Shown piece after piece: positions 2,647 to 60,444 of a stretch of DNA of 64,000 nucleotides. Position numbers and translations under genes: made by a program. The notes under the pieces were generated by a model. That model was not told the origin of the DNA. It saw nothing but the letters and a program-made list of their open reading frames with translations, and did no database searches. Each line of letters opens with the position of its first letter. Within the stretch, counting starts at the first letter, position 1. The stretch comes from Caldicellulosiruptor bescii DSM 6725 (GTDB taxonomy: Bacteria; Bacillota; Thermoanaerobacteria; Caldicellulosiruptorales; Caldicellulosiruptoraceae), in assembly GCF_000022325.1 (NCBI RefSeq), contig NC_012034.1, positions 1,010,501-1,074,500 on the forward strand, read 5' to 3'.

Positions 2647-3003
2647 ATGATTTTCAAAGGAATATTCAAGTACGAAGCACTCAACTGGGCAGTGCCATTT
2701 TTCACCTTTGTTGTGTTATTAGCTCTGGGTATAGACTACAGTGTATTTTTACTGATAAGGTTTTACGAATATAGAAATTTAGAACTTTCAGAAGCACTTA
2801 AGTTTACCTCAGCAAACATTGGTCATGTTGTAACATCAGCGGTGATAATTTTAGCTGGCACATTTGCGGCAATGCTGCCATCTGGGATTTTGACATTAAT
2901 GCAGGTTTCCATCTGTGTTGTGATAGGCCTTGTTCTGCTTGCATTTTTCCTGCTTCCATTTTTGTACAATACTTTGATGAGAATAAAAAGGGATATAATA
3001 TAA
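2647..3003 (+). pseudogene. C-terminal fragment of an MMPL/RND-type exporter
   Basis: The 118 residues match the end of MMPL-family transporters: the GIDYSVFLLIRFYEY motif, a TSANIGHVVTSAVIILAG helix and a final helix ending FLYNTLMRIKRD. The N-terminal ~600 residues typical of the family are absent, and no in-frame continuation is visible upstream. It is therefore a remnant. A diverged copy of its last 30 codons lies at 9366-9456, which marks the left edge of a duplicated block. Confidence 0.75.
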
Positions 3004-3260
3004 AAGGAACTTCGAAAAAATTTGAAAGCTGCTTCCAAGAGAAGGGGGGCAGCTTTTTGTTTGTGAAAAAACAAGAGAAAATTTAAGAAATTTAGAGATA
3101 TTAAAAGAAAGAGAGAGCTGATAGCTGAAAATTGCTTAAAATTAACTAAAAAAAAAAAAAAAAACGAGTTTGACAGGATGAAAATTAATAAAGTAAAATT
3201 GAGGTGAAAATGCCAAGGAGAAAATTAGTAAATATAGCAATCTGCAAGATTACAGGAGCA
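3003..3260 (+). repeat. Terminator-promoter-leader cassette, copy A
   Basis: First of five related copies. It holds a Rho-independent terminator (AAAGCTGC 3025-3032 with GCAGCTTT 3049-3056, then T5), a conserved AT-rich spacer, a run of 17 A (3148-3164), a promoter (TTGACA 3170-3175, 18-bp spacer, TAAAAT 3194-3199) and an ATG at 3210 that opens a short frame, MPRRKLVNIAIC. The cassette ends transcription of the MMPL remnant and starts that of the metzincin operon. Confidence 0.75.
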
Positions 3261-3380
3261 TTAACTTCTTTAAGAGCCCTAAAGAGGAGGTGGTATGTGA
3301 ATATGTTGTAGAAAATATAAATTTAGTATCATTAGCAAATATTAGTAAAACAAAGTATACTGACAGGAGGGGAAAAGCAA

Positions 3381-4151
3381 ATGATTGCTGAGAATTTAAA
3401 AAAGTTATACAATAAGATTGTGATATCAATTGCCTTAATTATTTTAATCGTAGTTTCTTCTTTGTTAACTATTGCCTATTCTCACGAATTGTATTATATA
3501 ATCGGTCAGAAATATTCTGTTCGGTGGTACTGGAAAATTACAGAAGGAGGAGTTACTAAGCTTTATATTAAAACTAATAGCGATTATTTGAAATCACCAT
3601 TTGTTGAGGTATACAACAATGCACTAAACAACTGGAACAATGCTTGGAGCTTAAATTCATCATCTAGCTTTGCAAGATCTTTGAACCTAAAAATACACAC
3701 ATACTCACATGTGAAGTTTGAAAATACTTCATTCAATTCAGCTAAACTGTTCTTTGCGACACCGACAAAAGAATGGTGGAACGCTACCGTTGGAAATAAT
3801 GGGGATATGGCGGGACTTGCTTTCATAACAAATACAGATGGGATTCAAATTACAGAAAGTAATGTTATAGGAATTAACAACAGAAACATTGGTGCTGGTT
3901 CTATTTTCGTAAGTCCATATATAACTGCAAGTAGAAGCGAATTTGAGAGAACGTATATCCTAATGCATGAAATGGGACATATTATAGGACTTGGTCATAT
4001 AAGCTATGATGACTTGTTAAATCCTTACCCACCTAATACAGTACCAGGTAGAAGTGTTATGACTTATGATTACTTAGCGCAATTTCCAACTCTACATGAC
4101 ATATATGATGTGGAAATAATGTATGGCTTTTCTTGTCGAAATTGGAAGTAA
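3381..4151 (+). CDS. Secreted or membrane-tethered metzincin-like zinc metalloprotease
   Basis: A 256-residue protein with an N-terminal hydrophobic helix (residues ~13-34, signal peptide or anchor) and the extended zinc motif HEMGHIIGLGH beginning at His196. The Met-turn follows in GRSVMTYDYL. HExxHxxGxxH plus a downstream Met defines metzincins; length and layout are closest to matrixin-like M10 proteases. No propeptide cysteine switch is evident. The ATG at 3381 has a strong AGGAGGGG site. The next gene begins 21 nt after the stop, so the two are co-transcribed. Near-identical and diverged homologues lie at 9827-11373 and 59719-60444. Confidence 0.8.
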   Translation: MIAENLKKLYNKIVISIALIILIVVSSLLTIAYSHELYYIIGQKYSVRWYWKITEGGVTKLYIKTNSDYLKSPFVEVYNNALNNWNNAWSLNSSSSFARSLNLKIHTYSHVKFENTSFNSAKLFFATPTKEWWNATVGNNGDMAGLAFITNTDGIQITESNVIGINNRNIGAGSIFVSPYITASRSEFERTYILMHEMGHIIGLGHISYDDLLNPYPPNTVPGRSVMTYDYLAQFPTLHDIYDVEIMYGFSCRNWK

Positions 4152-4172
4152 AAAATGAAGGGGGCAAATCGA

Positions 4173-4934
4173 ATGAAAAAGAAAACTAAAATTATAGCTT
4201 TGATGTTTAGTTTGACAATGATTGTAGGTATATCTATCATCTTTGTTCATTACGTTAAAAATGCTATTAAAATGAAATCCTATGAAAAACCTTTCTTCAC
4301 AGGTGCAGTAACAAGAATTGGCTTAGCAATACCACTAACATTTGAATATGGAGTTCAAAAGGCAAAAGTAATAGTTGTTGGGAAAGTTATTAATAAATAT
4401 GAAAAACTTGAAGATATAGAAGCAAAACCAGGAACACCAGAGCATGCTGTATTATCAAAAATAATGAATAAAGATTCCTCTTTAAATTATCCTGTAATTA
4501 TTCAAATACCGAGATTTTATGTTACAATTGAAGTTGAAAAGTTTCTTAAAGGAAAAGCCGATAAACGACTAATCCTTGAATTTACTAAGCTTTGTGACAA
4601 CAATGAAAATCTCTTCAAAATGAACCCAGGAGAAAGATTTGTCTTTATGTTAGAGGAGTCAGATAAACCTGGTATATGGTGGCATAGAGCTGATAAAAGA
4701 TTTATTTTCAAGGTTAACGATGACAACACGGTATATCCAGCTTGCTGGTGGTATGATGAAAAAAGTAGGAAAAGATTTTTGAATATTACTATAGAACAGT
4801 TAGCAGAAGAAATTAAAGAAGCAGAAAAGGTGAAGAATCCACCCATGTATGAGAAATTGTCGCCAAGCGCATCGCAAACGATGTATGAGGAATTAATAAG
4901 AAAACAAAAAATGGACAATAACACAAGTAACTAA
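4173..4934 (+). CDS. Membrane-anchored partner protein of the metzincin (unknown family)
   Basis: About 253 residues: one N-terminal membrane helix (~5-28), then an extracytoplasmic domain with VIVVGKVINKYEKLEDIEAKPGT, YVTIEVEKFLKGKADK, MNPGERFVFMLEE and ACWWYDEKSRKR. The V-GKV...Y-V-VEKFLKG...GE-FVF layout resembles small secreted beta-rich domains, but I do not recognise a named family. ATG 4173 is preferred over 4155 because AAGGGGG sits 8 nt before it. It follows the metzincin gene in all three copies in the window, so a substrate, inhibitor or chaperone role is plausible but unproven. Confidence 0.7.
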   Translation: MKKKTKIIALMFSLTMIVGISIIFVHYVKNAIKMKSYEKPFFTGAVTRIGLAIPLTFEYGVQKAKVIVVGKVINKYEKLEDIEAKPGTPEHAVLSKIMNKDSSLNYPVIIQIPRFYVTIEVEKFLKGKADKRLILEFTKLCDNNENLFKMNPGERFVFMLEESDKPGIWWHRADKRFIFKVNDDNTVYPACWWYDEKSRKRFLNITIEQLAEEIKEAEKVKNPPMYEKLSPSASQTMYEELIRKQKMDNNTSN

Positions 4935-5014
4935 AGAGTTAATAAAATTTTGAAGTTAAGTTAAAAGTGAAGGGTACTGGTGAGGATAAAAAGGAATATA
5001 GTCTAAAAAAAGCA

Positions 5015-5330
5015 TCTTTGAGAGAATATAAAAGCTACCTCCATGAAAGGGGTAGCTTTTTATTTACATAAAAATATGAGAAAATTTAAGGAATTTAGAG
5101 ATATTTGAAGGAAGAGAGAGCTGATAGCTAAAAATTGCATAAAATCAGCCTAAAAAAAGAAAAAACAAGTTTGACCAAGTAAAATTACTAATGTAGAATT
5201 GAAATAGAAATGCCAAGGAGAATATTAATAAATATAGCAATTTGCATATTGCCTTTCGCAAATGAGATAGTTTATATGCAAATAGGATGGTATACCAGGG
5301 AATATAAAAAAGAAAATATTAAAACATGCT
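5015..5330 (+). repeat. Terminator-promoter-leader cassette, copy B
   Basis: Terminator AAAAGCTACC (5030-5039) with GGTAGCTTTT (5051-5060); promoter TTGACC 5171-5176, 17-bp spacer, TAGAAT 5194-5199; ATG at 5210 opening a 54-codon frame (to 5374) that begins MPRRILINIAICILPFANEI. The frame starts only ~5 nt after the predicted transcription start and has no ribosome-binding site, so translation is doubtful. The cassette lies directly upstream of the RiPP cluster. Confidence 0.7.
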
Positions 5331-5375
5331 TATATATAATTATTGAGGTTCAATTTTATCTTACAAAAGAATGAT

Positions 5376-5553: not shown

Positions 5554-5586
5554 TAGTGGCAAGTCACTAAAAGTGACTTGCCACTA
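5554..5586 (+). terminator. 15-bp perfect hairpin after the precursor gene
   Basis: TAGTGGCAAGTCACT (5554-5568), loop AAA, then the exact complement (5572-5586). It starts 5 nt after the precursor stop. No U-tract follows, so it is more likely a partial terminator, RNA-stabilising 3' end or processing site that raises precursor mRNA over the downstream enzyme genes. A GTG inside it (5573) is in frame with the MFS gene but is not a plausible start. Confidence 0.6.
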
Positions 5587-5611
5587 CTATCAAGAAACGC
5601 GAGGGGATTTT

Positions 5612-6784
5612 ATGTTAGCTTATTATGTAACAATTTTTTTAAAAGGCACTGCAAAAGGGTTATTTTTTCCTATTTGGATATTGCATATATCAAACAACAA
5701 AATTTCTTTGTTTTTTATTGGCATATTAGGTACAATTTTGGAAACAGTTAGGTTTATCACAGAAATTCCTCTTGGGGCATTTGCAGATAAATATGGTAGA
5801 AAAGTTTCATTATTTTTATCAGCTTTTTTATATTTTATGGCTTTTTTCTTATTTTCATTGGGAAATACAATTTATATGTTTGTATTTTCAGTATTAATAA
5901 TGGGATTAGCTGATTCTTTCGAATCTGGAGCATTAGAGGCATGGTTAGCTGATCATTTGATTCTGAAAGGGAAAGTCGATAAACTTGAAAATGAGTTGAG
6001 AAAAATGTACATTATTTTGATTGCTGGAAGTATTATTGGAGCAATTTTTATAACCCATTTGTACAAAATGAATACTATTATGCCATTTTTAGTGTCAGCA
6101 GTATTATATTTAATTGCTACCTTAATAACATGTATTTTTGTACCTGAATCGTTGCCAGTATCTCGTAGTTCGAATATCAATAAGTCAATAATAAATAAAA
6201 TAAAATTATCTGTTTCTTATGTGATGTCAAGTAAAACTCTATTGTTATTGTCATTAGCAATGTTTTTATTTGCAATAGGATTTGATGGTATAGAAAGATT
6301 TTATCAGACATATTTAAAATATAGAAAATTCAACGTTTTTTGGATAAGCAATATATATATAATTAGTGCTATTTTTGGTCTTGCGTTTATGTTTTTACAA
6401 AACATGTTGATTAACAATAAAAAAAATGATTTATTAATAATTGGCAATCTAAAAATTTCAATGTTTATAATACTAACTGTTGCTATCTTTATAAACTTAA
6501 ATATTATCTCATACTTATGTTTAGTGTCCTTTTTTGTATTAGAAGTTATTCTTAGACCTTATCTTCAAAGCTATCTAAATAAATTTATTGATTCTGAAAT
6601 AAGGGCTACTACATTATCTTTTTTTCAATTTGCAGAAGCGTGCGGCGAAATTTTAGCAGGTATAGGAATTGGTTACTTTATAAAGGTTTTAGGCATTTCA
6701 TATGGTTTGTTTGTAAGTGCCGTATTTATTTTAATTTCGGGTTTAGCAGTTTTTGTTTTGTTATTTTTTGAAAGGATATATTGA
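5612..6784 (+). CDS. MFS transporter, probable RiPP exporter
   Basis: 390 residues with about 12 membrane helices. The MFS loop motif GAFADKYGRK lies at residues ~53-62, between helices 2 and 3. ATG 5612 has GAGGGG 7 nt upstream. The gene lies between the precursor and the maturation genes, so export of, or self-protection against, the mature peptide is the most likely job. No ABC exporter or C39 peptidase lies in the cluster, so leader removal would have to be done by another enzyme. The second half is very Ile/Lys/Asn-rich, as in the rest of the cluster. Confidence 0.75.
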   Translation: MLAYYVTIFLKGTAKGLFFPIWILHISNNKISLFFIGILGTILETVRFITEIPLGAFADKYGRKVSLFLSAFLYFMAFFLFSLGNTIYMFVFSVLIMGLADSFESGALEAWLADHLILKGKVDKLENELRKMYIILIAGSIIGAIFITHLYKMNTIMPFLVSAVLYLIATLITCIFVPESLPVSRSSNINKSIINKIKLSVSYVMSSKTLLLLSLAMFLFAIGFDGIERFYQTYLKYRKFNVFWISNIYIISAIFGLAFMFLQNMLINNKKNDLLIIGNLKISMFIILTVAIFINLNIISYLCLVSFFVLEVILRPYLQSYLNKFIDSEIRATTLSFFQFAEACGEILAGIGIGYFIKVLGISYGLFVSAVFILISGLAVFVLLFFERIY

Positions 6785-6812
6785 AATATTGATTAAAATG
6801 GGGGGTGTTTAG

Positions 6813-7076
6813 ATGCCTAAATATAAACAAGTAAAAGTGGATTATAGAATATTTAAAAATGGATATTTATTTAGTAATGGAATTGCTTTAAACAAGACAG
6901 CTTTTGAAATATGGGAATGTTGTAGAGAACCTGTAGATGAGAATATAATTGTAAAAAAGTTCTTTGAAAAATATATGCCTCAATCTGATGAAGATAAAAA
7001 AATGATTATTGAAGATATAAAAAATTGCCTGAATTTATTGATAGAAGGGAATCTTATCGAAAGGATTGGTAAATGA
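6813..7076 (+). CDS. PqqD-family RiPP recognition element protein
   Basis: An 87-residue stand-alone protein with the PqqD-like fold pattern: VDYRIFKNGYLFSNGIALNKTAFEIWECC (three strands and first helix), then helices IIVKKFFEKY and IIEDIKNCLNLLIEGNLIERI. Such proteins bind the precursor leader and present it to a radical SAM enzyme. A GGGGGGTG site precedes the ATG, and the stop TGA abuts the ATG of the first radical SAM gene, so the two are translationally coupled. Confidence 0.85.
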   Translation: MPKYKQVKVDYRIFKNGYLFSNGIALNKTAFEIWECCREPVDENIIVKKFFEKYMPQSDEDKKMIIEDIKNCLNLLIEGNLIERIGK

Positions 7077-8183
7077 ATGGAATTAGTGGATACTTCTATT
7101 AGAATTAGGAAGATATTAGGTGATATACCAATACTTGCTGCTTCAATAAGAGTAACAAAAAGATGTAATGCATTTTGCAAACATTGCTATGGTAACTCAG
7201 GTGAACCATTTAATAATGAGTTAACTACTCGAGAAATTAAGAAGCTAATAGACGTTTATAGTGATGAATTTGGAGTAAAGAAAATCTTTTTTACAGGCGG
7301 TGAGCCATTTGCAAGAGGAGATATAGTAGAGATATTACAATATGCGTACTATAAAAATATGGAAATATTAATAAGTACTAATGGTTCTCTACTCACAAAA
7401 GATATACTAAAAGAAATACAAAATATAAACTTTTCTATGTTTCAAATTAGTATTGATGGACCTAAGGAAATTCATAATAAAATTAGAGGTGATGGGTTTT
7501 TCGAAAAAGCAATAAATGCTTTAAAATTATTAAAAGAGTTGAATTTTAAAAATGTGACAATAGCTACTTGTCTTATGAAAGAAAATTATGATCAAATTAA
7601 TAAAATAATTGATATTGTAGTTGAATATGAAGTTGATATATATTCTTTAGTTTTACTTTTAGTAGCTGGTAGAGCTAATAGTGAATTAGATGTAACTTCG
7701 CAAGAATTAAAATTAGCAATTAATGATTTGTTTAGTGCTTATAGAAAATATAAAGGAAAATTCAAGTTAGCAGAAAATAGTATTATTCCGCCAGCTTTAG
7801 TACCTGCCGATTTACGAGAAGAAGGTCTGCATAAGCAATTTGAGGTATGTTGTGCATTTCCTAATATCATAGGTATTGAAGCAAATGGTGATGTTGCTCC
7901 ATGTGATGGTTTTTTTACTTTTCCTGAGTATATTGCAGGAAACATAAGAGAATCTTCTGTCTTGGATATATGGGAAAGGTCTAATGTATTTTCAAAGTTG
8001 TCCGAACTAAATAGATTAGATATTAAAGGTGTTTGTAGTAAATGTATATTTCTAAGTACATGTGCAGGTAGTTGTCGTGCCTCAGCGTATGCGTATTATA
8101 AAGATATACATGCACCATTTCCAACGTGCCAAAAACTATATGAAGAGGGTCTTTTCCCGCCAGATTGTATAGTAGGAGAGTGA
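7077..8183 (+). CDS. Radical SAM/SPASM peptide maturase 1
   Basis: 368 residues. The radical SAM CxxxCxxC motif is CNAFCKHC (residues ~29-36), followed by FFTGGEPF and the ISIDGPKEIHNKIRG segment of the TIM barrel. The C-terminal SPASM domain shows Cys in VCCAFPNIIGIEANGDVAPC and GVCSKCIFLSTCAGSCRASA, enough for two auxiliary Fe-S clusters. This layout is shared by PqqE, AlbA-type and epimerase-type RiPP maturases; the reaction cannot be told from sequence. It follows the PqqD-like gene directly and is a paralogue of the next gene. Confidence 0.9.
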   Translation: MELVDTSIRIRKILGDIPILAASIRVTKRCNAFCKHCYGNSGEPFNNELTTREIKKLIDVYSDEFGVKKIFFTGGEPFARGDIVEILQYAYYKNMEILISTNGSLLTKDILKEIQNINFSMFQISIDGPKEIHNKIRGDGFFEKAINALKLLKELNFKNVTIATCLMKENYDQINKIIDIVVEYEVDIYSLVLLLVAGRANSELDVTSQELKLAINDLFSAYRKYKGKFKLAENSIIPPALVPADLREEGLHKQFEVCCAFPNIIGIEANGDVAPCDGFFTFPEYIAGNIRESSVLDIWERSNVFSKLSELNRLDIKGVCSKCIFLSTCAGSCRASAYAYYKDIHAPFPTCQKLYEEGLFPPDCIVGE

Positions 8184-8186
8184 ATT

Positions 8187-9278
8187 TTGAAAATGTTTGT
8201 AAATAGTGAAGATATTTTCAGTAGCATACCCATATTATCTGCTTCGGTTAAAGTTACTCGCAAATGTAATTTAGCTTGCAAACATTGTTATGTAGCAAAT
8301 AAAAATTTTGATTATCAAAGTGAACTTTCTGTTAACGAGATTAAATTGATAATTGAACAGTTATATGAGGCAGGTTGTTTAGACTTGTATTTAAATGGTG
8401 GAGAACCTTTTCTAAATGAAAACATATTAGAAATTTGTGAATTTGCACATAATAAAGGATTGAGAATTTCAGTGAGTACTAATGGAATTACTATCGACGA
8501 AGAAATAATAAAAATATTATCAAAATTTAATTTGAAGATTTTTCAAGTTAGTATAGATGGATTAGAAGAAACACATGATAAAATAAGAAATAAAATAGGA
8601 GCTTTTAGAGAAGGAATAAAAGCATTAAATTTAGCAAAGAGATATTTTAAAAATTCTGATACTACAGTAATAATGGCAACGACATTAATGGAAGATAACA
8701 AAAATCAAATTTTCAAGTTATATGATTTAGCTTGTGAATTAAACGTTGATACATATGCATTAATTCCATTACTTCCAACAGGAAGAGCTTGTTCTGCAAT
8801 AGATGTATCAGTAAAAGAAAAAATGGATATTTTTAGTAATATAGCAGAATATTTTGTAAGTAAAAATACTTCTACCGAGCTAAGTCTTATTTTACCACCT
8901 GGTTTAATACCAAAAGTATTATCAACAAGAAAGTATGGGAAAGGTTATTACTGTACATTTCCAAACATAATAGGAATTGATTCTAATGGGAATATAGCAC
9001 CATGTGATGGTTTATTAAATATAAATGAATTAATTATTGGGAATATTAGAAAAAAAACTATAGAAGAATGCTGGTACAGTTTTGTTATGGAGGAAATAAG
9101 AAATATCAATGTAAATCAATTAAAAGGAGTCTGCTCAATGTGTAAATTTCTCTCTACTTGTAGAGGTGGCTGTAGAGCTTATGCATATATCAAAACAGGT
9201 AGTTTTTATGCTTCTGATCCATTATGTCAAGAAATTTACGAAGCTGGTTTATTTCCTAAAGAATCTTTAAAGACATAG
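8187..9278 (+). CDS. Radical SAM/SPASM peptide maturase 2
   Basis: 363 residues with CNLACKHC, LNGGEPF, VSIDGLEETHDKIR and a SPASM domain (YYCTFPNIIGIDSNGNIAPC; GVCSMCKFLSTCRGGCRAYA). Both maturases end in a similar C-Q-x-[IL]-Y-E-x-GLFP tail, so they arose by duplication. The likely start is TTG 8187, with AGGAGA 8 nt before it and only 3 nt after the previous stop; ATG 8193 is the alternative. Two maturases for a 24-residue peptide imply two kinds or two sets of modification. Confidence 0.88.
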   Translation: MKMFVNSEDIFSSIPILSASVKVTRKCNLACKHCYVANKNFDYQSELSVNEIKLIIEQLYEAGCLDLYLNGGEPFLNENILEICEFAHNKGLRISVSTNGITIDEEIIKILSKFNLKIFQVSIDGLEETHDKIRNKIGAFREGIKALNLAKRYFKNSDTTVIMATTLMEDNKNQIFKLYDLACELNVDTYALIPLLPTGRACSAIDVSVKEKMDIFSNIAEYFVSKNTSTELSLILPPGLIPKVLSTRKYGKGYYCTFPNIIGIDSNGNIAPCDGLLNINELIIGNIRKKTIEECWYSFVMEEIRNINVNQLKGVCSMCKFLSTCRGGCRAYAYIKTGSFYASDPLCQEIYEAGLFPKESLKT

Positions 9279-9365
9279 TTTATATTTTTTTATTTCGTTA
9301 GCAAACCAAATGTTTCCATAAATGTACTTTTATTAAGAATTTTAGCTTTGATAGAAGTTTATATC

Positions 9366-9456
9366 TGCATTGTAATAGAGTTAGTTCTGCCTGCATTTTT
9401 CCTACATCCGTTTTTGTATAGTACTTTAATAAGAGTAAAAAGGGATATAATATAAA
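9366..9456 (+). pseudogene. Diverged copy of the MMPL exporter tail
   Basis: Thirty codons reading LVLPAFFLHPFLYSTLIRVK..., clearly matching the end of the fragment at 2908-3003 but with many differences. No upstream coding sequence belongs to it. It marks the left edge of the second copy of the metzincin block. Between the end of the radical SAM gene and this remnant (9279-9365) I see nothing else. Confidence 0.6.
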
Positions 9457-9740
9457 AGGAAATTCGAAAAAATTTGAAAGCTGCCTCCAGAGAAGGGGGC
9501 AGCTTTTTGTTTGCGAAAAAACAAGAGAAAATTTAAGAAATTTAGAGATATTAAAAGAAAGAGAGAGCTGATAGCTGAAAATTGCTTAAAATTAACTAAA
9601 AAAAAAAAAACGAGTTTGACAGGATGAAAATTAATAAAGTAAAATTAAGGTGAAAATGCCAAGGAGAAAATTAGTAAATATAGCAATCTGCAAGATTACA
9701 GGAGCATTAACTTCTTTAAGAGTCCTAAAGAGGAGGTGGT
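9457..9740 (+). repeat. Terminator-promoter-leader cassette, copy C
   Basis: Nearly identical to copy A: terminator AAAGCTGCC 9477-9485 with the complementary arm near 9499-9506, TTGACA 9616-9621, 18-bp spacer, TAAAAT 9640-9645, ATG 9656. The A run before the -35 is 13 bases instead of 17. It drives the second metzincin/partner pair. Confidence 0.7.
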
Positions 9741-10018
9741 ATGTGAATATGTTGTAGAAAATATAAATTTAGTATCATTAGCAAATATTAGTAAAACAAA
9801 GTATACTGACAGGAGGGGAAAAGCAAATGATTGCTGAGAATTTAAAAAAGTTATACAATAAGATTGTGATATCAATTGCCTTAATTATTTTAATCGTAGT
9901 TTCTTCTTTGTTAACCATTGCCTATTCTCACGAATTGTATTATATAATCGGTCAGAAATATTCTGTTCGGTGGTACTGGAAAATTACAGAAGGAGGAGTT
10001 ACTAAGCTTTATATTAAA

Positions 10019-10360
10019 TTTTTTATCCATGCTCTCTTCAAAGATTTTCAGTGTCCATTCTCTTACATCTGGATCTGTTAATTTGGCGAATAGCTTATTG
10101 TAATTTTTAAATATTTCTTCAGCTTTCGGGTGATATTTTCTAAAATCATCACCGTTTATTTTTACAACGTTGCCATCTTTAAAAAATTCGTTTTCTGATA
10201 ATGTTATTATTTTGCTTTTTCCTGCCCCAGGTTGTCCGCCAAGAATAATTATTTTAGGGTAATCAACTGGACTCTTGTTTTCAAAAATTTTTTCCCTTAT
10301 ATCATGTAAAACTTTATCATGCTCTTTACTATTTAGTTTATAAAGATTTTCATTAATCAT
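10019..10360 (-). pseudogene. Zeta-toxin-family kinase, C-terminally truncated
   Basis: The start ATG (10360) has AGAAGGGA upstream and lies 22 nt after the preceding gene. Visible motifs are the P-loop GGQPGAGKS and the zeta-specific INGDDFRKYHPKAEE, the substrate-binding region of UDP-N-acetylglucosamine-phosphorylating toxins. After EWTLKIFEESMDKK the frame runs into antisense metzincin DNA and stops at 9911. Zeta/PezT toxins normally need ~100 or more further residues, so this protein is probably inactive. Confidence 0.75.
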
Positions 10361-10381
10361 TTGTGTTTTTCCCTTCTTGAT

Positions 10382-10678
10382 TTAAAAGGTTTTAGAGTTT
10401 ATAATTTTTTCTTCATCGATTGACCGAGAGAGGAGAGCATAAGCAGTTAGTGCCCTTTCAGTTGCATCTTTGTCACCACGATAGATGAGATCTCTTTCTT
10501 TCCACAGTGTTTTTAAGATTTTTTCTATTTTTTGAATCTTTCGTTCTTTTGTTTCGTTATCAAGAGACAAATCTTCAATTTTAATTTTTATATTGGTTAG
10601 CTTACCGAGAAGTCCCATAACTGTATCAATAGCAACCTCATGTTTAATATCTTCTTGAATAGTTTTTATATCGCTCAT
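10382..10678 (-). CDS. Putative antitoxin paired with the zeta-toxin fragment
   Basis: 98 residues, highly charged and mostly helical (KIKIEDLSLDNETKERKIQKIEKILKTLWKERD), with no recognisable DNA-binding motif. The start at 10678 is chosen because GGAGG lies 9 nt upstream. It precedes the zeta-like gene in the same direction, the usual antitoxin-first order. The antitoxin label rests on context only. Confidence 0.55.
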   Translation of the reverse strand: MSDIKTIQEDIKHEVAIDTVMGLLGKLTNIKIKIEDLSLDNETKERKIQKIEKILKTLWKERDLIYRGDKDATERALTAYALLSRSIDEEKIINSKTF

Positions 10679-11394
10679 CTTCATCATCCTCCTTCAATTA
10701 AATAATAGCACTTTTGAGCTGAAATATGCAAGTTTTTGTTATAAAAAAATGTTGAGTTATTTTGAGATTGAAATAGCGTTAGCCATGTGTTAAAATTAAT
10801 AGCGATTATTTGAAATCACCATTTGTTGAGGTATACAACAATGCACTAAACAACTGGAACAATGCTTGGAGCTTAAATTCATCATCTAGCTTTGCAAGAT
10901 CTTTGAACCTAAAAATACACACATACTCACATGTGAAGTTTGAAAATACTTCATTCAATTCAGCTAAACTGTTCTTTGCGACACCGACAAAAGAATAGTG
11001 GAAAGCTACCGTTGGAAATAATGGGGATATGGCGGGATTTGCTTTCATCACAAATACAGATGGGATTCAAATTACAGAAAGTAATGTTATAGGAATTAAC
11101 AACAGAAACATTGGTGCTGGTTCTATTTTCGTAAGTCCATATATAACTGCAAGTACAAGCGAATTTGAGAGAACGTATATCCTAATGCATGAAATGGGAC
11201 ATATTATAGGACTTGGTCATATAAGCTATGATGACTTGTTAAATCCTTACCCACCTAATACAGTACCAGGTAGAAGTGTTATGACTTATGATTACTTAGC
11301 GCAATTTCCAACTCTACATGACATATATGATGTGGAAATAATGTATGGCTTTTCTTGTCGAAATTGGAAGTAAAAAATGAAGGGGGCAAATCGA

Positions 11395-12156
11395 ATGAAA
11401 AAGAAAACTAAAATTATAGCTTTGATGTTTAGTTTGACAATGATTGTAGGTATATCTATCATCTTTGTTCATTACGTTAAAAATGCTATTAAAATGAAAT
11501 CCTATGAAAAACCTTTCTTCACAGGTGCAGTAACAAGAATTGGCTTAGCAATACCACTAACATTTGAATATGGAGTTCAAAAGGCAAAAGTAATAGTTGT
11601 TGGGAAAGTTATTAATAAATATGAAAAACTTGAAGATATAGAAGCAAAACCAGGAACACCAGAGCATGCTGTATTATCAAAAATAATGAATAAAGATTCC
11701 TCTTTAAATTATCCTGTAATTATTCAAATACCGAGATTTTATGTTACAATTGAAGTTGAAAAGTTTCTTAAAGGAAAAGCCGATAAACGACTAATCCTTG
11801 AATTTACTAAGCTTTGTGACAACAATGAAGATCTCTTCAAAATGAACCCAGGAGAAAGATTTGTCTTTATGTTAGAGGAGTCAGATAAACCTGGTATATG
11901 GTGGCATAGAGCTGATGACAGATTTATTTTCAAGGTTAACGATGACAACACGGTATATCCAGCTTGCTGGTGGTATGATGAAAAAAGTAGGAAAAGATTT
12001 TTGAATATTACTATAGAACAGTTAGCAGAAGAAATTAAAGAAGCAGAAAAGGTGAAGAATCCACCCATGTATGAGAAATTGCCGCCAAGCGCATCGCAAA
12101 CGATGTATGAGGAATTAATAAGAAAACAAAAAATGGACAATAACACAAGTAACTAA
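11395..12156 (+). CDS. Metzincin-partner protein, copy 2
   Basis: Almost identical to 4173-4934 (a handful of substitutions, for example N to D in DNNEDLFKMNPGE and K to D in ADDRFIFKVND). It has the same membrane helix, the same ACWWYDEKSRKR segment and the same AAGGGGG site. It is intact although its upstream metzincin is broken. It may still be expressed from cassette C or from the insert. Confidence 0.7.
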   Translation: MKKKTKIIALMFSLTMIVGISIIFVHYVKNAIKMKSYEKPFFTGAVTRIGLAIPLTFEYGVQKAKVIVVGKVINKYEKLEDIEAKPGTPEHAVLSKIMNKDSSLNYPVIIQIPRFYVTIEVEKFLKGKADKRLILEFTKLCDNNEDLFKMNPGERFVFMLEESDKPGIWWHRADDRFIFKVNDDNTVYPACWWYDEKSRKRFLNITIEQLAEEIKEAEKVKNPPMYEKLPPSASQTMYEELIRKQKMDNNTSN

Positions 12157-12237
12157 AGAGTTAATAAAATTTTGAAGTTAAGTTAAAAGCGAAGGGTACT
12201 GGTGAGGATAAAAAGGAATATAGTCTAAAAAAAGCAT

Positions 12238-12545
12238 CTTTGAGAGAATATAAAAGCTACCTCCATGAAAGGGGTAGCTTTTTATTTACATAAAAATATG
12301 AGAAAATTTAAGGAATTTAGAGATATTTGAAGGAAGAGAGAGCTGATAGCTAAAAATTGCATAAAATCAGCCTAAAAAGAGAAAAAACAAGTTTGACCAA
12401 GTAAAATTACTAATGTAGAATTGAAAGAGAAATGCCAAGGAGAATATTAATAAATATAGCAATTTGCATATTGCCTTTCGCAAATGAGATAGTTTATATG
12501 CAAATAGGATGGTATGCCAGGGAATATAAAAAGAATATATTGCAA
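12238..12545 (+). repeat. Terminator-promoter-leader cassette, copy D
   Basis: Copy of cassette B: terminator AAAAGCTACC 12252-12261 with complement 12273-12282, TTGACC 12393-12398, 17-bp spacer, TAGAAT 12416-12421, ATG 12432. Similarity to copy B ends near 12545, which sets the right edge of the duplicated metzincin block. The long frame from 12432 is a by-product of the repeat. Confidence 0.7.
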
Positions 12546-12619
12546 CATGTTTATGTTTGTTACCATTATTTGTCTATTTGTTTATTATACTTAAAAGATT
12601 TCAAGTTACAATGGCATCA

Positions 12620-16256: not shown

Positions 16257-16287
16257 AGTTTTTTACTAAAAAATTAAAGGGGTTTCT

Positions 16288-16540
16288 ATTTGTTTGCGGA
16301 AAAACAAGAGAAAATTTAAGGAATTTAGAGATATTTGAAGAAAGAGAGAGCTGATAGCTAAAAATTGCTTAAAATTAACTAAAAAAACGAGTTTGACAGG
16401 ATGAAAGTTAATAAAGTAAAATTGAGGTGAAAATTCCAAGGAGAATATTAATAAATATAGCAATTTCCATATTGCCTTTCGCAAATGAGATAGTTTATAT
16501 GCAAATAGGATGGTATACCAGGGAATATAAAAAAGAAATT
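16288..16540 (+). repeat. Terminator-promoter-leader cassette, copy E
   Basis: Resembles copies A/C at its left (TTGACA 16393-16398, 18-bp spacer, TAAAAT 16417-16422, A run of only 7) and copies B/D at its right (ATATTGCCTTTCGCAAATGA). It is thus a hybrid. The terminator hairpin is not intact, and the start codon is changed to ATT. It precedes the RlpA-like gene. Confidence 0.65.
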
Positions 16541-16583
16541 ATTTATTTTAATTTTGAGATATTTCAACTGGTATTGGCATTAA

Positions 16584-58942: not shown

Positions 58943-59683
58943 TTATTTTTCTGAAGAGCTTTTAGTTTGCGATTCAGATTCTGCTTCGTAGTACTTTTCC
59001 CATACCTCTTTTGGAACATCATCATACATAGGGACATTTTCAAGTTTATCTATTCTTTTGAACTCTTCTGATAATTGATCTAAGGTTATATTAAAATATT
59101 TCCTCTTATATCTTTCATCATACCACCAACAAGCAGGATATACGGTATTGTTGCTGTTCACTTTGAATATAAACCTATTGGGACAATTTACATACCAGGT
59201 ATTAGGCCTTGTGTTTTTTCCTTTTGTCAGAACAAACACAAATTTTTCACCAGGATTCATTGCAAAAAGATCAGAGTGATTTTGTGGATCAAAGACTACA
59301 AAGCCTACATCAATTTGTTTTTCATCTAATTTGCCTTTGAGAACCTTTTCAACTTCAACTGTAACATAAAGTCTTGGCAGGATCTTAACAAAAGGTATGC
59401 CTGCTGCTTTCGCAACTCCATATTCATTTGTACCAGGTTGTGCAGTTATTGTTTCTTCTACTTGTTCTTTTTTAATAACTTTTCCAACGATAATAAGCTC
59501 TGAATATTTTGCGCAAAATTCAAAATTAAGAAATCTTACAGAAGACATAGGATCAATGTAAATTTTAGGTTTTTCATATTGAATTGTTGTGTGTGTATTT
59601 TTAAATTTGATAAGCATGTAAGGTAGTAATAACAACAAAAAAATACAAAGAATTAAAATGCCTATTTTAATTCTTTTCTTCAT
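58943..59683 (-). CDS. Metzincin-partner protein, copy 3 (diverged)
   Basis: 246 residues from ATG 59683 (GGAGG 7 nt upstream). Same plan as 4173-4934: one membrane helix, IIVGKVIKKEQVEETITAQPGT, LYVTVEVEKVLKGKLDEKQ, MNPGEKFVFVLTKG and ACWWYDERYKRKYFN. Conserved blocks across copies mark the likely functional parts. It follows the third metzincin gene. Confidence 0.7.
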   Translation of the reverse strand: MKKRIKIGILILCIFLLLLLPYMLIKFKNTHTTIQYEKPKIYIDPMSSVRFLNFEFCAKYSELIIVGKVIKKEQVEETITAQPGTNEYGVAKAAGIPFVKILPRLYVTVEVEKVLKGKLDEKQIDVGFVVFDPQNHSDLFAMNPGEKFVFVLTKGKNTRPNTWYVNCPNRFIFKVNSNNTVYPACWWYDERYKRKYFNITLDQLSEEFKRIDKLENVPMYDDVPKEVWEKYYEAESESQTKSSSEK

Positions 59684-59718
59684 ACTATTACCTCCTAAAT
59701 TATCAAATACATTTTTTA

Positions 59719-60444
59719 ATAACGGCAATTAAAATTATACATTATCTCTATATCATATACGTCGTGAATAGAAGGATAATCCTCATTAAAATAATTGTCC
59801 ATTATACTTCCGTATGTTTGAGCTGAATATGGATTTCTGGAATCTGTACCATTTGGGTGTCCCAAACCAATTGCATGTCCCATCTCATGCATTAAAATTC
59901 CTCTCCGTTGAATAAAATTGTAGGCAGTCGAAGTGACGTAGGGACTTAAGTATATAATAGATTTGCCAATATTTCTGTCTACACTTGAAACGGTAGAAGA
60001 GTCAACTTTAGTTCCATAGATATTATAATTTTCTGTGAGAGCTAAAAACTCGTATTGCTCGTAACTGTAATTAAATAATTGTTGCCACCATTCTTTTGAA
60101 GCTGAGCAAAAGAAAAGATTTGCATTTGAGTATGTTGTATCAATACATTTTATATGAGAAACTGAGTGAATATTATAATTTGCATTAGCACTCCATGCAT
60201 TATTCCAGTTACTTAAAGAAGATGTATATGTCTCTAAGAATGGTTGATCTAAATAATCCTTATTAGCTTTTAAATAAAGTTTTGTTTTGCCATCTTCTGT
60301 AATTTTAGTATACCATCTAATGGGGTACGAGTATATTTCGTGTGAGTAAGTATAAGTTGGTAAGTAAGTAGATAATATAACTAAAACTGTTGCAAAGAGA
60401 ACTTTGATTTGATTAAAACATTTTTTGTGAACAGTTTTAATCAT
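59719..60444 (-). CDS. Metzincin-like zinc metalloprotease, copy 3 (diverged)
   Basis: 241 residues from ATG 60444 (AAGGAGGG 8 nt upstream). Signal peptide to ~residue 35 (STYLPTYTYSHE), zinc motif HEMGHAIGLGH, Met-turn YGSIMDNYF, ending DIEIMYNFNCRY. Many substitutions compared with copies 1 and 2 but every metzincin feature kept, so it is under selection. No terminator-promoter cassette precedes it. Confidence 0.8.

What the first reader, a model, noticed from the sequence alone, without database searches (positions are those of the whole stretch)
58943..60444. Three metzincin + partner pairs, one strongly diverged yet fully conserved in motifs
The partner always follows the metzincin within a few dozen bases (or overlaps the region), and both keep defined blocks (HEMGHxxGLGH; GKV..KxE, MNPGExFVF, ACWWYDE). 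Constant linkage suggests a functional pair of unknown kind, possibly protease plus dedicated inhibitor or substrate.
Basis: partly seen in the sequence, partly recalled or inferred. Interest (0 to 1): 0.55.

Follow-up and report, generated by a model that had tools for sequence, protein, structure and literature searches.

The report
Secreted protease with TIMP-like partner
Two neighbouring bacterial genes make a secreted zinc protease and a surface protein shaped like the animal inhibitors (TIMPs) of such proteases; a pair of this kind is already described in Listeria, and this is a further, much-duplicated and partly decayed branch of it.

Summary
The pair is real. Window 59719-60444(-) encodes a metzincin; 32 bases on, 58943-59683(-) encodes a partner with an N-terminal membrane helix. 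Pair A1 (3381-4934) is intact. In pair A2 (9827-12156) the protease is a pseudogene (insertion plus stop) and only the partner is open.

The "unknown kind" is known: the Mtz-Tim pair of Boichis et al. 2021 (PMC8235301). One Tim model built without this genus and without the Listeria Tim finds both that Tim (2.7e-18) and the window partners (7.6e-15, 1.4e-10); a protease model does likewise. A low-confidence model of the partner has TIMP-2 as its first two PDB matches (E 0.012, prob 0.99), and the 38 best realigned entries are all TIMP/NTR-type.

Linkage is asymmetric. 24 of 28 short metzincins from 398 genomes are followed by a Tim-like gene, but 42 of 79 Tim-like places lack a metzincin directly upstream. 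In the genus, all 7 discordant loci have lost the protease and kept the partner.

I favour a cognate inhibitor or immunity role; Listeria Tim is also cleaved. New: Paenibacillus fusions and the decay pattern.

The parts
59719..60444 (-). mtz-C: metzincin with hydrophobic N-terminus, 242 aa, HEMGHAIGLGH, Met-turn SIM; stop codon at 59716-59718
   Evidence: metzincin HMM built without this genus E 6.4e-12
58943..59683 (-). tim-C: TIMP/NTR-fold partner, 246 aa, predicted N-terminal helix 3-29, linker with YEKP (residues 36-39), core from about residue 47-54
   Evidence: Tim HMM without this genus E 7.6e-15
3381..4151 (+). mtz-A1: intact metzincin, 256 aa, HEMGHIIGLGH, Met-turn SVM
   Evidence: PF00413 25.6 bits, cut-off 24; E 1.4e-15
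4173..4934 (+). tim-A1: partner, 253 aa from ATG 4173; an in-frame ATG lies at 4155
   Evidence: E 1.4e-10
9827..11373 (+). mtz-A2: pseudogene copy of mtz-A1, interrupted between 10018 and 10790, with a TAG at 10996-10998
10019..10789 (-). insertion inside mtz-A2 (about 771 bases), carrying most of a truncated Zeta_toxin ORF (9911-10360, running on into the old gene) and a small ORF (10382-10687)
   Evidence: PF06414 E 2.4e-23, profile positions 9-98 of 199
11395..12156 (+). tim-A2: open partner gene left beside the protease pseudogene; 4 non-synonymous and 0 synonymous differences from tim-A1

Best explanation
Each pair is an Mtz-Tim cassette: a small secreted matrixin-like zinc protease in which I see no pro-domain (by eye), and a cognate partner probably held at the outer face of the membrane by its N-terminal helix and carrying a TIMP/NTR-type OB-fold. 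Most likely Tim binds the active-site cleft of its own protease and so protects the producing cell (and sister cells that carry Tim) from a protease that acts on bacterial envelope proteins; cut free from its anchor by the protease, it can stay bound or act at a distance. Shown here: gene identity, homology to Listeria Mtz and Tim, the TIMP-like predicted fold, linkage, fusion, and one-sided decay. Shown by others in Listeria: Mtz cleaves Tim, and the two together sensitise cells and their neighbours to cell-wall attack. Inferred: secretion and anchoring, inhibition, the envelope target, and the immunity role.
For: Homology: a Tim HMM from 23 sequences (no window genus, not L109; it does include a different Tim relative from a Listeria record, L077) gives Listeria Tim 2.7e-18 and window-genus Tims 7.6e-15, 1.4e-10 and 5.1e-12; best of 200 shuffles 0.33. 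A protease HMM from 21 sequences gives Listeria Mtz 5.4e-22 and window 1.4e-15 and 6.4e-12; best of 150 shuffles 2.3. Fold: Foldseek PDB ranks 1-7 are TIMP or NTR/NtA entries, TIMP-2 first (E 0.012 and 0.013, prob 0.99 and 0.97); among the 1000 best realigned by VIA, ranks 1-38 are TIMP, NtA, NTR or complement C3/C4/CVF chains over their NTR-type end (that last label recalled), Z 9.4 to 5.0, then other OB-folds under 5. Linkage: 24 of 28 short metzincins, in 17 genera, have a Tim-like next gene. Fusion: metzincin and Tim in one ORF in Paenibacillus; Tim domains inside 5 of the 15 large proteins, that one included. Decay: of 14 loci in the genus, protease intact in 3 and Tim in 10; 7 of 7 discordant loci keep Tim (sign test p 0.016). 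Group D Tims of G001, G005 and G007, none beside an intact protease: dN/dS 0.11-0.14. Precedents: potempins (PMC7296668 passages, where inhibition is cited as unpublished) and a putative T6SS metalloproteinase with a potempin-like immunity protein (PMC13340143 passages).
Against: No inhibition has been measured here, nor reported in the parts of PMC8235301 I read; there Mtz cuts Tim and the phenotypes need both active Mtz and Tim, which is not plain inhibition. The TIMP zinc-binding Cys1 is absent (Ser47 aligns there). 42 of 79 Tim-like places have no metzincin directly upstream, so part of the family does something else. The partner model is poor (mean pLDDT 59, three close sequences; residues 26-52, which hold position 47, are under 50), no Foldseek match reaches E 0.001, and the protease model failed (pLDDT 38). 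Direct comparison of the genus profile with the single Listeria Tim was not significant. Constraint on orphan Tims is not uniform: tim-C of G008 is broken; tim-C of G005 gives dN/dS 0.27-0.31 against 0.11 for G000-G002 (both paired) and 0.22 for G000-G001 (G001 has a broken protease); tim-A2 differs from tim-A1 by 4 non-synonymous and no synonymous changes.
Confidence: 0.58

Rival explanations
1. Tim is mainly the substrate. It is an inactive membrane-held precursor, and Mtz sheds the TIMP-like fragment, which then acts on cell walls of the producer and its neighbours (the model of Boichis et al. 2021).
For: Listeria Mtz cuts off about 50 N-terminal residues of Tim; an E136A Mtz does not; conditioned medium sensitises other cells only with Tim and active Mtz (PMC8235301 sections 4.3 and 5). 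In the window genus the linker motif YEKP is identical in all three groups (4 of 4 positions), while none of the next 11 is.
Against: Open Tim genes persist at 7 loci where the protease is lost or broken, with dN/dS 0.11-0.14 in group D; a precursor without its activator should decay. It does not by itself explain the TIMP-like fold or the fusions.
Confidence: 0.25
2. A phage or mobile-element lysis accessory: the pair rides on mobile elements and helps lysis, and its presence here is debris.
For: PMC8235301 reports prophage and mobile-element neighbourhoods. Transposase-like genes (by eye) lie near several loci here, and many copies are broken. A Lactobacillus phage (3-521) encodes a protein annotated Zn-dependent protease that matches a metzincin of this kind weakly (E 0.09).
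Against: Scans of viral contigs with the window proteins, which reach close relatives only, found nothing. In phage records the Tim of L069 matched 2 and the protease of L054 matched 4 records labelled Listeria phage, three other queries none; of the records looked at, L110 has chromosomal-looking neighbours (proB, PrsW-like, XRE). BFVD gave no TIMP-like hit in its 50 listed rows, many of them unnamed. Group C and D Tims evolve under constraint.
Confidence: 0.09
3. Two unrelated secreted proteins merely co-transcribed; the partner is a general envelope OB-fold protein.
For: 42 of 79 Tim-like places have no metzincin directly upstream; some sit beside an ABC-transporter ATPase (by eye; L154, L162, L175, and L178 at 381 bases).
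Against: 24 of 28 short metzincins have the partner, in 17 genera; fusions; the groups diverge in step (A-C 42/39%, A-D 45/42%, C-D 58/55% for protease/partner).
Confidence: 0.06

Closest known systems
Mtz-Tim pair of Listeria monocytogenes (LMRG_00713/00714; Boichis et al. 2021, PMC8235301)
   Same: Small secreted metzincin followed directly by a surface protein of TIMP-like predicted fold; both proteins score with the same HMMs as the window pair.
   Different: The window Tims have no lipobox (the paper says the same of other Firmicutes) and a longer part with ACWWYDE; I saw no XRE genes directly beside pairs A1 and C in the ORF lists (by eye); several paralogous, partly decayed pairs per genome.
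Potempins and KLIKK proteases of Tannerella (karilysin with PotA is recalled)
   Same: Bacterial proteases, one of them matrixin-like, each with a small lipoprotein inhibitor in an operon (PMC7296668 passages; inhibition cited there as unpublished).
   Different: There the inhibitor gene precedes the protease. No potempin appeared among the PDB sequence or fold matches listed; common origin not shown.
Animal TIMPs and NTR domains (TIMP-1/2/3, agrin NtA, PCOLCE NTR)
   Same: Same predicted fold; TIMP, NtA and NTR rows align over 110-136 residues with Z 9.4 to 5.0.
   Different: No Pfam TIMP or NTR match, no Cys1, four cysteines in all (13, 57, 167, 185) against twelve in TIMPs (recalled), 10-16% identity.
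Putative T6SS metalloproteinase Tse2 and immunity Tsi2 of Stenotrophomonas rhizophila (PMC13340143)
   Same: MMP-like protease paired with a signal-peptide-bearing potempin-like immunity protein (passages).
   Different: Effector fused to PAAR and injected by T6SS; the window pair looks like generally secreted proteins; no T6SS was looked for.

Membership tests
Mtz-Tim pair (Boichis et al. 2021) | Small metzincin with HEXXHXXGXXH/D and a Met-turn | tested here: met
   HEMGHAIGLGH with SIM and HEMGHIIGLGH with SVM; HMM of metzincins of this kind 6.4e-12 and 1.4e-15
Mtz-Tim pair (Boichis et al. 2021) | Partner gene directly downstream | tested here: met
   gaps of 3 to 32 bases depending on pair and start codon; absence of a separate promoter not tested
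Mtz-Tim pair (Boichis et al. 2021) | Partner homologous to Listeria Tim | tested here: met
   one HMM built without either finds both (it includes another Tim relative from a Listeria record); direct comparison of A3 with the single Listeria Tim was not significant (prob 1.1)
Mtz-Tim pair (Boichis et al. 2021) | Partner has a TIMP-like fold | tested here: met
   on a low-confidence model
Mtz-Tim pair (Boichis et al. 2021) | Secretion signals | not tested
   no signal-peptide predictor here; hydrophobic N-termini seen by eye, helix 3-29 in the partner model
Mtz-Tim pair (Boichis et al. 2021) | Lipobox on Tim (not universal by the paper itself) | tested here: not met
   by eye: the one early Cys of tim-C (13) follows LIL and lies inside the hydrophobic stretch; tim-A has no Cys there
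Mtz-Tim pair (Boichis et al. 2021) | Mtz cleaves Tim | not testable with these tools
   needs protein
TIMP family (PF00965) | Sequence match to the Pfam family | tested here: not met
   no TIMP or NTR model among hits up to E 10; HMMER filters drop most weak matches
TIMP family (PF00965) | N-terminal Cys1 that binds the catalytic zinc (recalled) | tested here: not met
   Ser47 aligns with the first TIMP residue in the 18 TIMP rows, though this stretch of the model has pLDDT under 50
Matrixin, PF00413 (M10) | Score over the curated cut-off | tested here: inconclusive
   mtz-A1 25.6 bits over 24; mtz-C 17.2 bits, under it
Potempin | Sequence or fold match to a potempin | tested here: inconclusive
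   none among the PDB matches listed; not listed does not exclude

The most novel reading that the evidence does not exclude
Mtz-Tim is a secreted toxin-immunity system of Gram-positive bacteria built on the MMP/TIMP fold pair. The protease attacks envelope proteins of competing relatives; the anchored Tim is the immunity protein, kept as an orphan immunity gene after the toxin is lost (seven loci here, none the other way). Tim becomes a full TIMP-type inhibitor only when Mtz cuts its linker: of the published Listeria cut region (about residues 49-55), residues 52-55 align with residues 40-43 of the window Tim and 49-51 fall opposite a gap (numbering uncertain by two), just upstream of residue 47, which aligns with TIMP residue 1. 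Cutting would thus create a free N-terminus close to where TIMPs put theirs into the active site.
Probability: 0.25. Interest if true: 0.72.

Novelty: new member of a known kind. Interest (0 to 1): 0.42.

Why it matters
The animal MMP/TIMP pair is a textbook protease-inhibitor system. Among the papers my searches listed, one study describes a bacterial metzincin with a TIMP-like partner, on the strength of a Phyre2 prediction (about 60%, over 90% for the cleaved form). Here a separate prediction and fold search also give TIMP/NTR first, and the pairing appears as a rule for short metzincins of the phylum, with single-chain fusions. That makes inhibitor, substrate or immunity directly testable, perhaps with heat-stable proteins if the host is the thermophile I suspect. 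If the immunity reading holds, secreted matrixins would be a new class of Gram-positive weapons.

Tried and rejected
AlphaFold of the protease (A2, two sequences) failed (pLDDT 38); nothing is drawn from it. The fused Paenibacillus protein was not folded: MAFFT misplaced the Tim rows (A5), only two fold jobs existed, and coordinates are not returned. The genome-contig scan with the partner alignment found nothing, perhaps because near relatives are left out. Viral-contig scans with A1 and A2 found nothing. The scan with L069 Tim gave L075 and L076; in L076 the match lies inside a terminase-like ORF, L075 has the same matched residues and was not opened; both set aside as chance. Plasmids: no match for the window partner or the L069 protease. 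Pfam, NCBIfam, PHROGs and PADLOC name no family for the partner (weak chance-like rows only). Rfam, whole window: none at gathering score. PDB sequence searches: chance-like matches for the partner and the 16-row Tim profile; for mtz-A1 a putative metalloprotease at E 0.13 and an unrelated row at 0.011. BFVD: no useful match. The G095 hit was rejected by eye. Direct comparison with the one Listeria Tim was not significant; the link rests on the family HMM.

Counts. Of the 47 places, dropped before the 24-of-28 count: 1 at a contig end (L067), 3 that do not look like metzincins (L070, L100, L103) and 15 in large proteins (L042, L043, L046, L051, L052, L055, L059, L062, L066, L093, L095, L099, L102, L105, L106; L062 has a Tim-like next gene, E 8.8e-4). 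The four misses: L049, L107 (archaemetzincin-like, by eye) and two short frames, L050 and L104. Of the 24, three are of the window genus (scored through winA), L057 is near-identical to L058 and was scored through it, two Tims are partial (L064, L094), and candidates were picked by eye before the leave-one-group-out test (E for 4000 sequences). The 79 Tim places come from a model seeded with metzincin-adjacent Tims, with at most 8 candidates scored in most genomes, so they are a lower bound and the paired share (31 paired, 5 fused, 42 none, 1 contig edge) leans upward. Against that, of the 42, L137 and L141 have a longer HELGH protein upstream, L144 is a second Tim after a pair, and L163 is the remnant of a fusion; of the 31, L015 has a broken protease and L157 only a 55-residue HExxH frame. 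Prior-art searches; in their listings only PMC8235301 describes the pair.

Full report
OBSERVATION. The window (G000:C1:1010501-1074500 of a 2.93-Mb genome) holds three metzincin zinc sites; 100 shuffles gave none. Pair C, the one given, is mtz-C 59719-60444(-) and tim-C 58943-59683(-), 32 bases apart with AGGAGG before the Tim ATG. Pair A1 is 3381-4151 and 4173-4934 (+). Pair A2, 9827-12156, is a copy of A1 inside a larger duplication (2887-5333 against 9339-12554). Its protease is broken by about 771 bases carrying a Zeta_toxin fragment and by a TAG; its partner is open.

GENUS. Among 12 genomes of the genus (own plus 11) the partner model matched 7 and the protease model 5; outside the genus each matched one of the other 89 genomes, the partner match being rejected and the protease match (L022) being real. 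I sort the copies into groups A, C and D by similarity. Over 14 loci where either gene is detectable, the protease is intact in 3 (G000 A1 and C, G002 C) and the partner in 10 (G003 A ends about 9 residues early). In the 7 discordant loci (G000 A2, G001 C and D, G003 A, G005 C and D, G007 D) it is always the protease that is lost, by different lesions: insertion plus stop, stop in the N-terminal hydrophobic stretch, truncation, absence beside a transposase-like gene. The loci are not fully independent, so the sign test (p 0.016) is a guide only. The partner is broken in G000 D and G008 C and not found at G002 A and G007 C. Pairwise dN/dS of partners: group D 0.106 (G001-G005), 0.144 (G001-G007), 0.135 (G005-G007), none of the three beside an intact protease; group C 0.11 (G000-G002), 0.22 (G000-G001), 0.27 and 0.31 (with the orphan of G005); group A 0.24 (G000-G003), and 4 non-synonymous against 0 synonymous changes between A1 and A2. 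Proteases: 0.32 (C, G000-G002), 0.48 and 0.79 (A, partly pseudogenes). These values include time before any loss.

FAMILY. No library names the partner. The lead was L022, from another family of the phylum: a metzincin with a diverged partner 18 bases on. I then took all PF00413 matches in 398 genomes of the phylum, without reference to the partner: 47 places in 37 genomes. Of 28 short metzincins with readable flanks, 24, in 17 genera, have a next gene that a leave-one-group-out Tim model recognises (E 0.0022 to 2e-25). Of the 15 large proteins, 5 carry a Tim domain themselves (L043, L046, L055, L093, L106). In Paenibacillus both domains form one ORF of about 350-390 aa: P. pabuli, P. xylanivorans and P. 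taichungensis, with a broken copy in Paenibacillus sp. OVF10. Of 75 genomes of that genus 11 matched the fused protein; six have an open fused frame, two of them (L083, L084) only 40-43% identical, and one is broken. The reverse search with a Tim model found 79 places in 54 of 398 genomes: 31 directly after a HExxH gene, 5 fused, 42 without, 1 at a contig edge. So the protease depends on the partner more than the partner on the protease.

FOLD. AlphaFold of tim-C with the three window sequences: pLDDT 59, pTM 0.56, a helix at 3-29, then a beta-rich core with short helices; residues 26-52 are under 50. Foldseek against the PDB puts TIMP-2 at ranks 1 and 2 (prob 0.99, 0.97; E 0.012-0.013, none under 0.001), then the PCOLCE NTR domain, TIMP-1 twice, agrin NtA and TIMP-2; the first unrelated entry is rank 8. 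VIA-align, a second look at Foldseek's best 1000 chains, lists at ranks 1-38 only TIMP, NtA, NTR or complement-type entries (Z 9.4 to 5.0); other OB-folds follow below 5. The 18 TIMP rows all begin at model residue 47 and the first TIMP residue. Z under 8 can be chance by the tool's own note; the uniform list is what persuades me.

LINK TO THE KNOWN PAIR. PMC8235301 (abstract, sections 4.1, 4.3 and 5, and passages read) describes a secreted metzincin Mtz and a TIMP-like lipoprotein Tim in Listeria, with similar pairs in other Firmicutes near mobile elements. Two of the four matching records labelled Listeria phage were opened and hold such a pair, both Tims with an LTAC lipobox, one cut by the contig end; one locus has proB, a PrsW-like gene and an XRE gene nearby (by eye), as in the paper. 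One Tim model without the window genus and without that sequence finds both it and the window Tims, and one protease model finds both proteases. The window pair is thus a member of the Mtz-Tim kind.

MECHANISM. Inhibitor or immunity is my first choice: TIMP fold, dependence of the protease on the partner, protease-first decay, and parallels in potempins (passages of PMC7296668) and in a putative T6SS metalloproteinase with a potempin-like immunity protein (passages of PMC13340143). Substrate or shed effector is the main rival, because Listeria data show cleavage and an effect needing both. The two can be joined: part of the published cut region of Listeria Tim aligns just upstream of the position that matches TIMP residue 1, and YEKP is the one invariant linker block in the genus (4 of 4, against 0 of the next 11). 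That alignment is loose and lies in a low-confidence part of the model; no step of this was tested.

ORGANISM.

VERDICT. A real, functional-looking pair of a described kind; what I did not find in the papers listed is its spread as a rule, the fusions, the orphan pattern and the blind PDB fold result. Interest is moderate.

Noticed in passing
window 10019-10789: About 771 bases inserted in the mtz-A2 pseudogene carry a truncated Zeta_toxin ORF and a small upstream ORF on the minus strand; no transposase ORF is visible there, and the ends share what looks like a short target repeat.
   Followed up: partly
window 2975-3246, 4978-5246, 9436-9692, 12200-12468, 16273-16543: A roughly 270-base repeat with a terminator-like hairpin, a conserved leader and a TTGACA promoter-like stretch (by eye) flanks the A pairs; 17 matches in the genome, 7 of them within 993-1027 kb. 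No Rfam match.
   Followed up: partly
window 5573-9278: Between pairs A1 and A2: an MFS transporter, a PqqD-like protein and two radical SAM/SPASM proteins, the look of a peptide-modification cluster; no precursor was sought.
   Followed up: no
L162 (G000:C1:761300-765900) and L154 in the genus; L175; L178 with 381 bases between: Tim-like proteins beside an ABC-transporter ATPase (by eye) rather than a metzincin: possibly a second role of the fold.
   Followed up: partly
L071-L073 (Paenibacillus pabuli, xylanivorans, taichungensis), 4001-5104: Metzincin and Tim domain in a single protein, followed by a small lipoprotein-like gene (118-119 aa).
   Followed up: partly
L077 2390-2998: A Tim relative with no metzincin ORF beside it, in a record labelled Listeria phage whose neighbours look chromosomal.
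   Followed up: partly
G086:C1:2619500-2625900 (L145, L146, L118): Three Tim-like genes in tandem, one with a stop inside, each preceded by a HExxH protease, in one genome.
   Followed up: no
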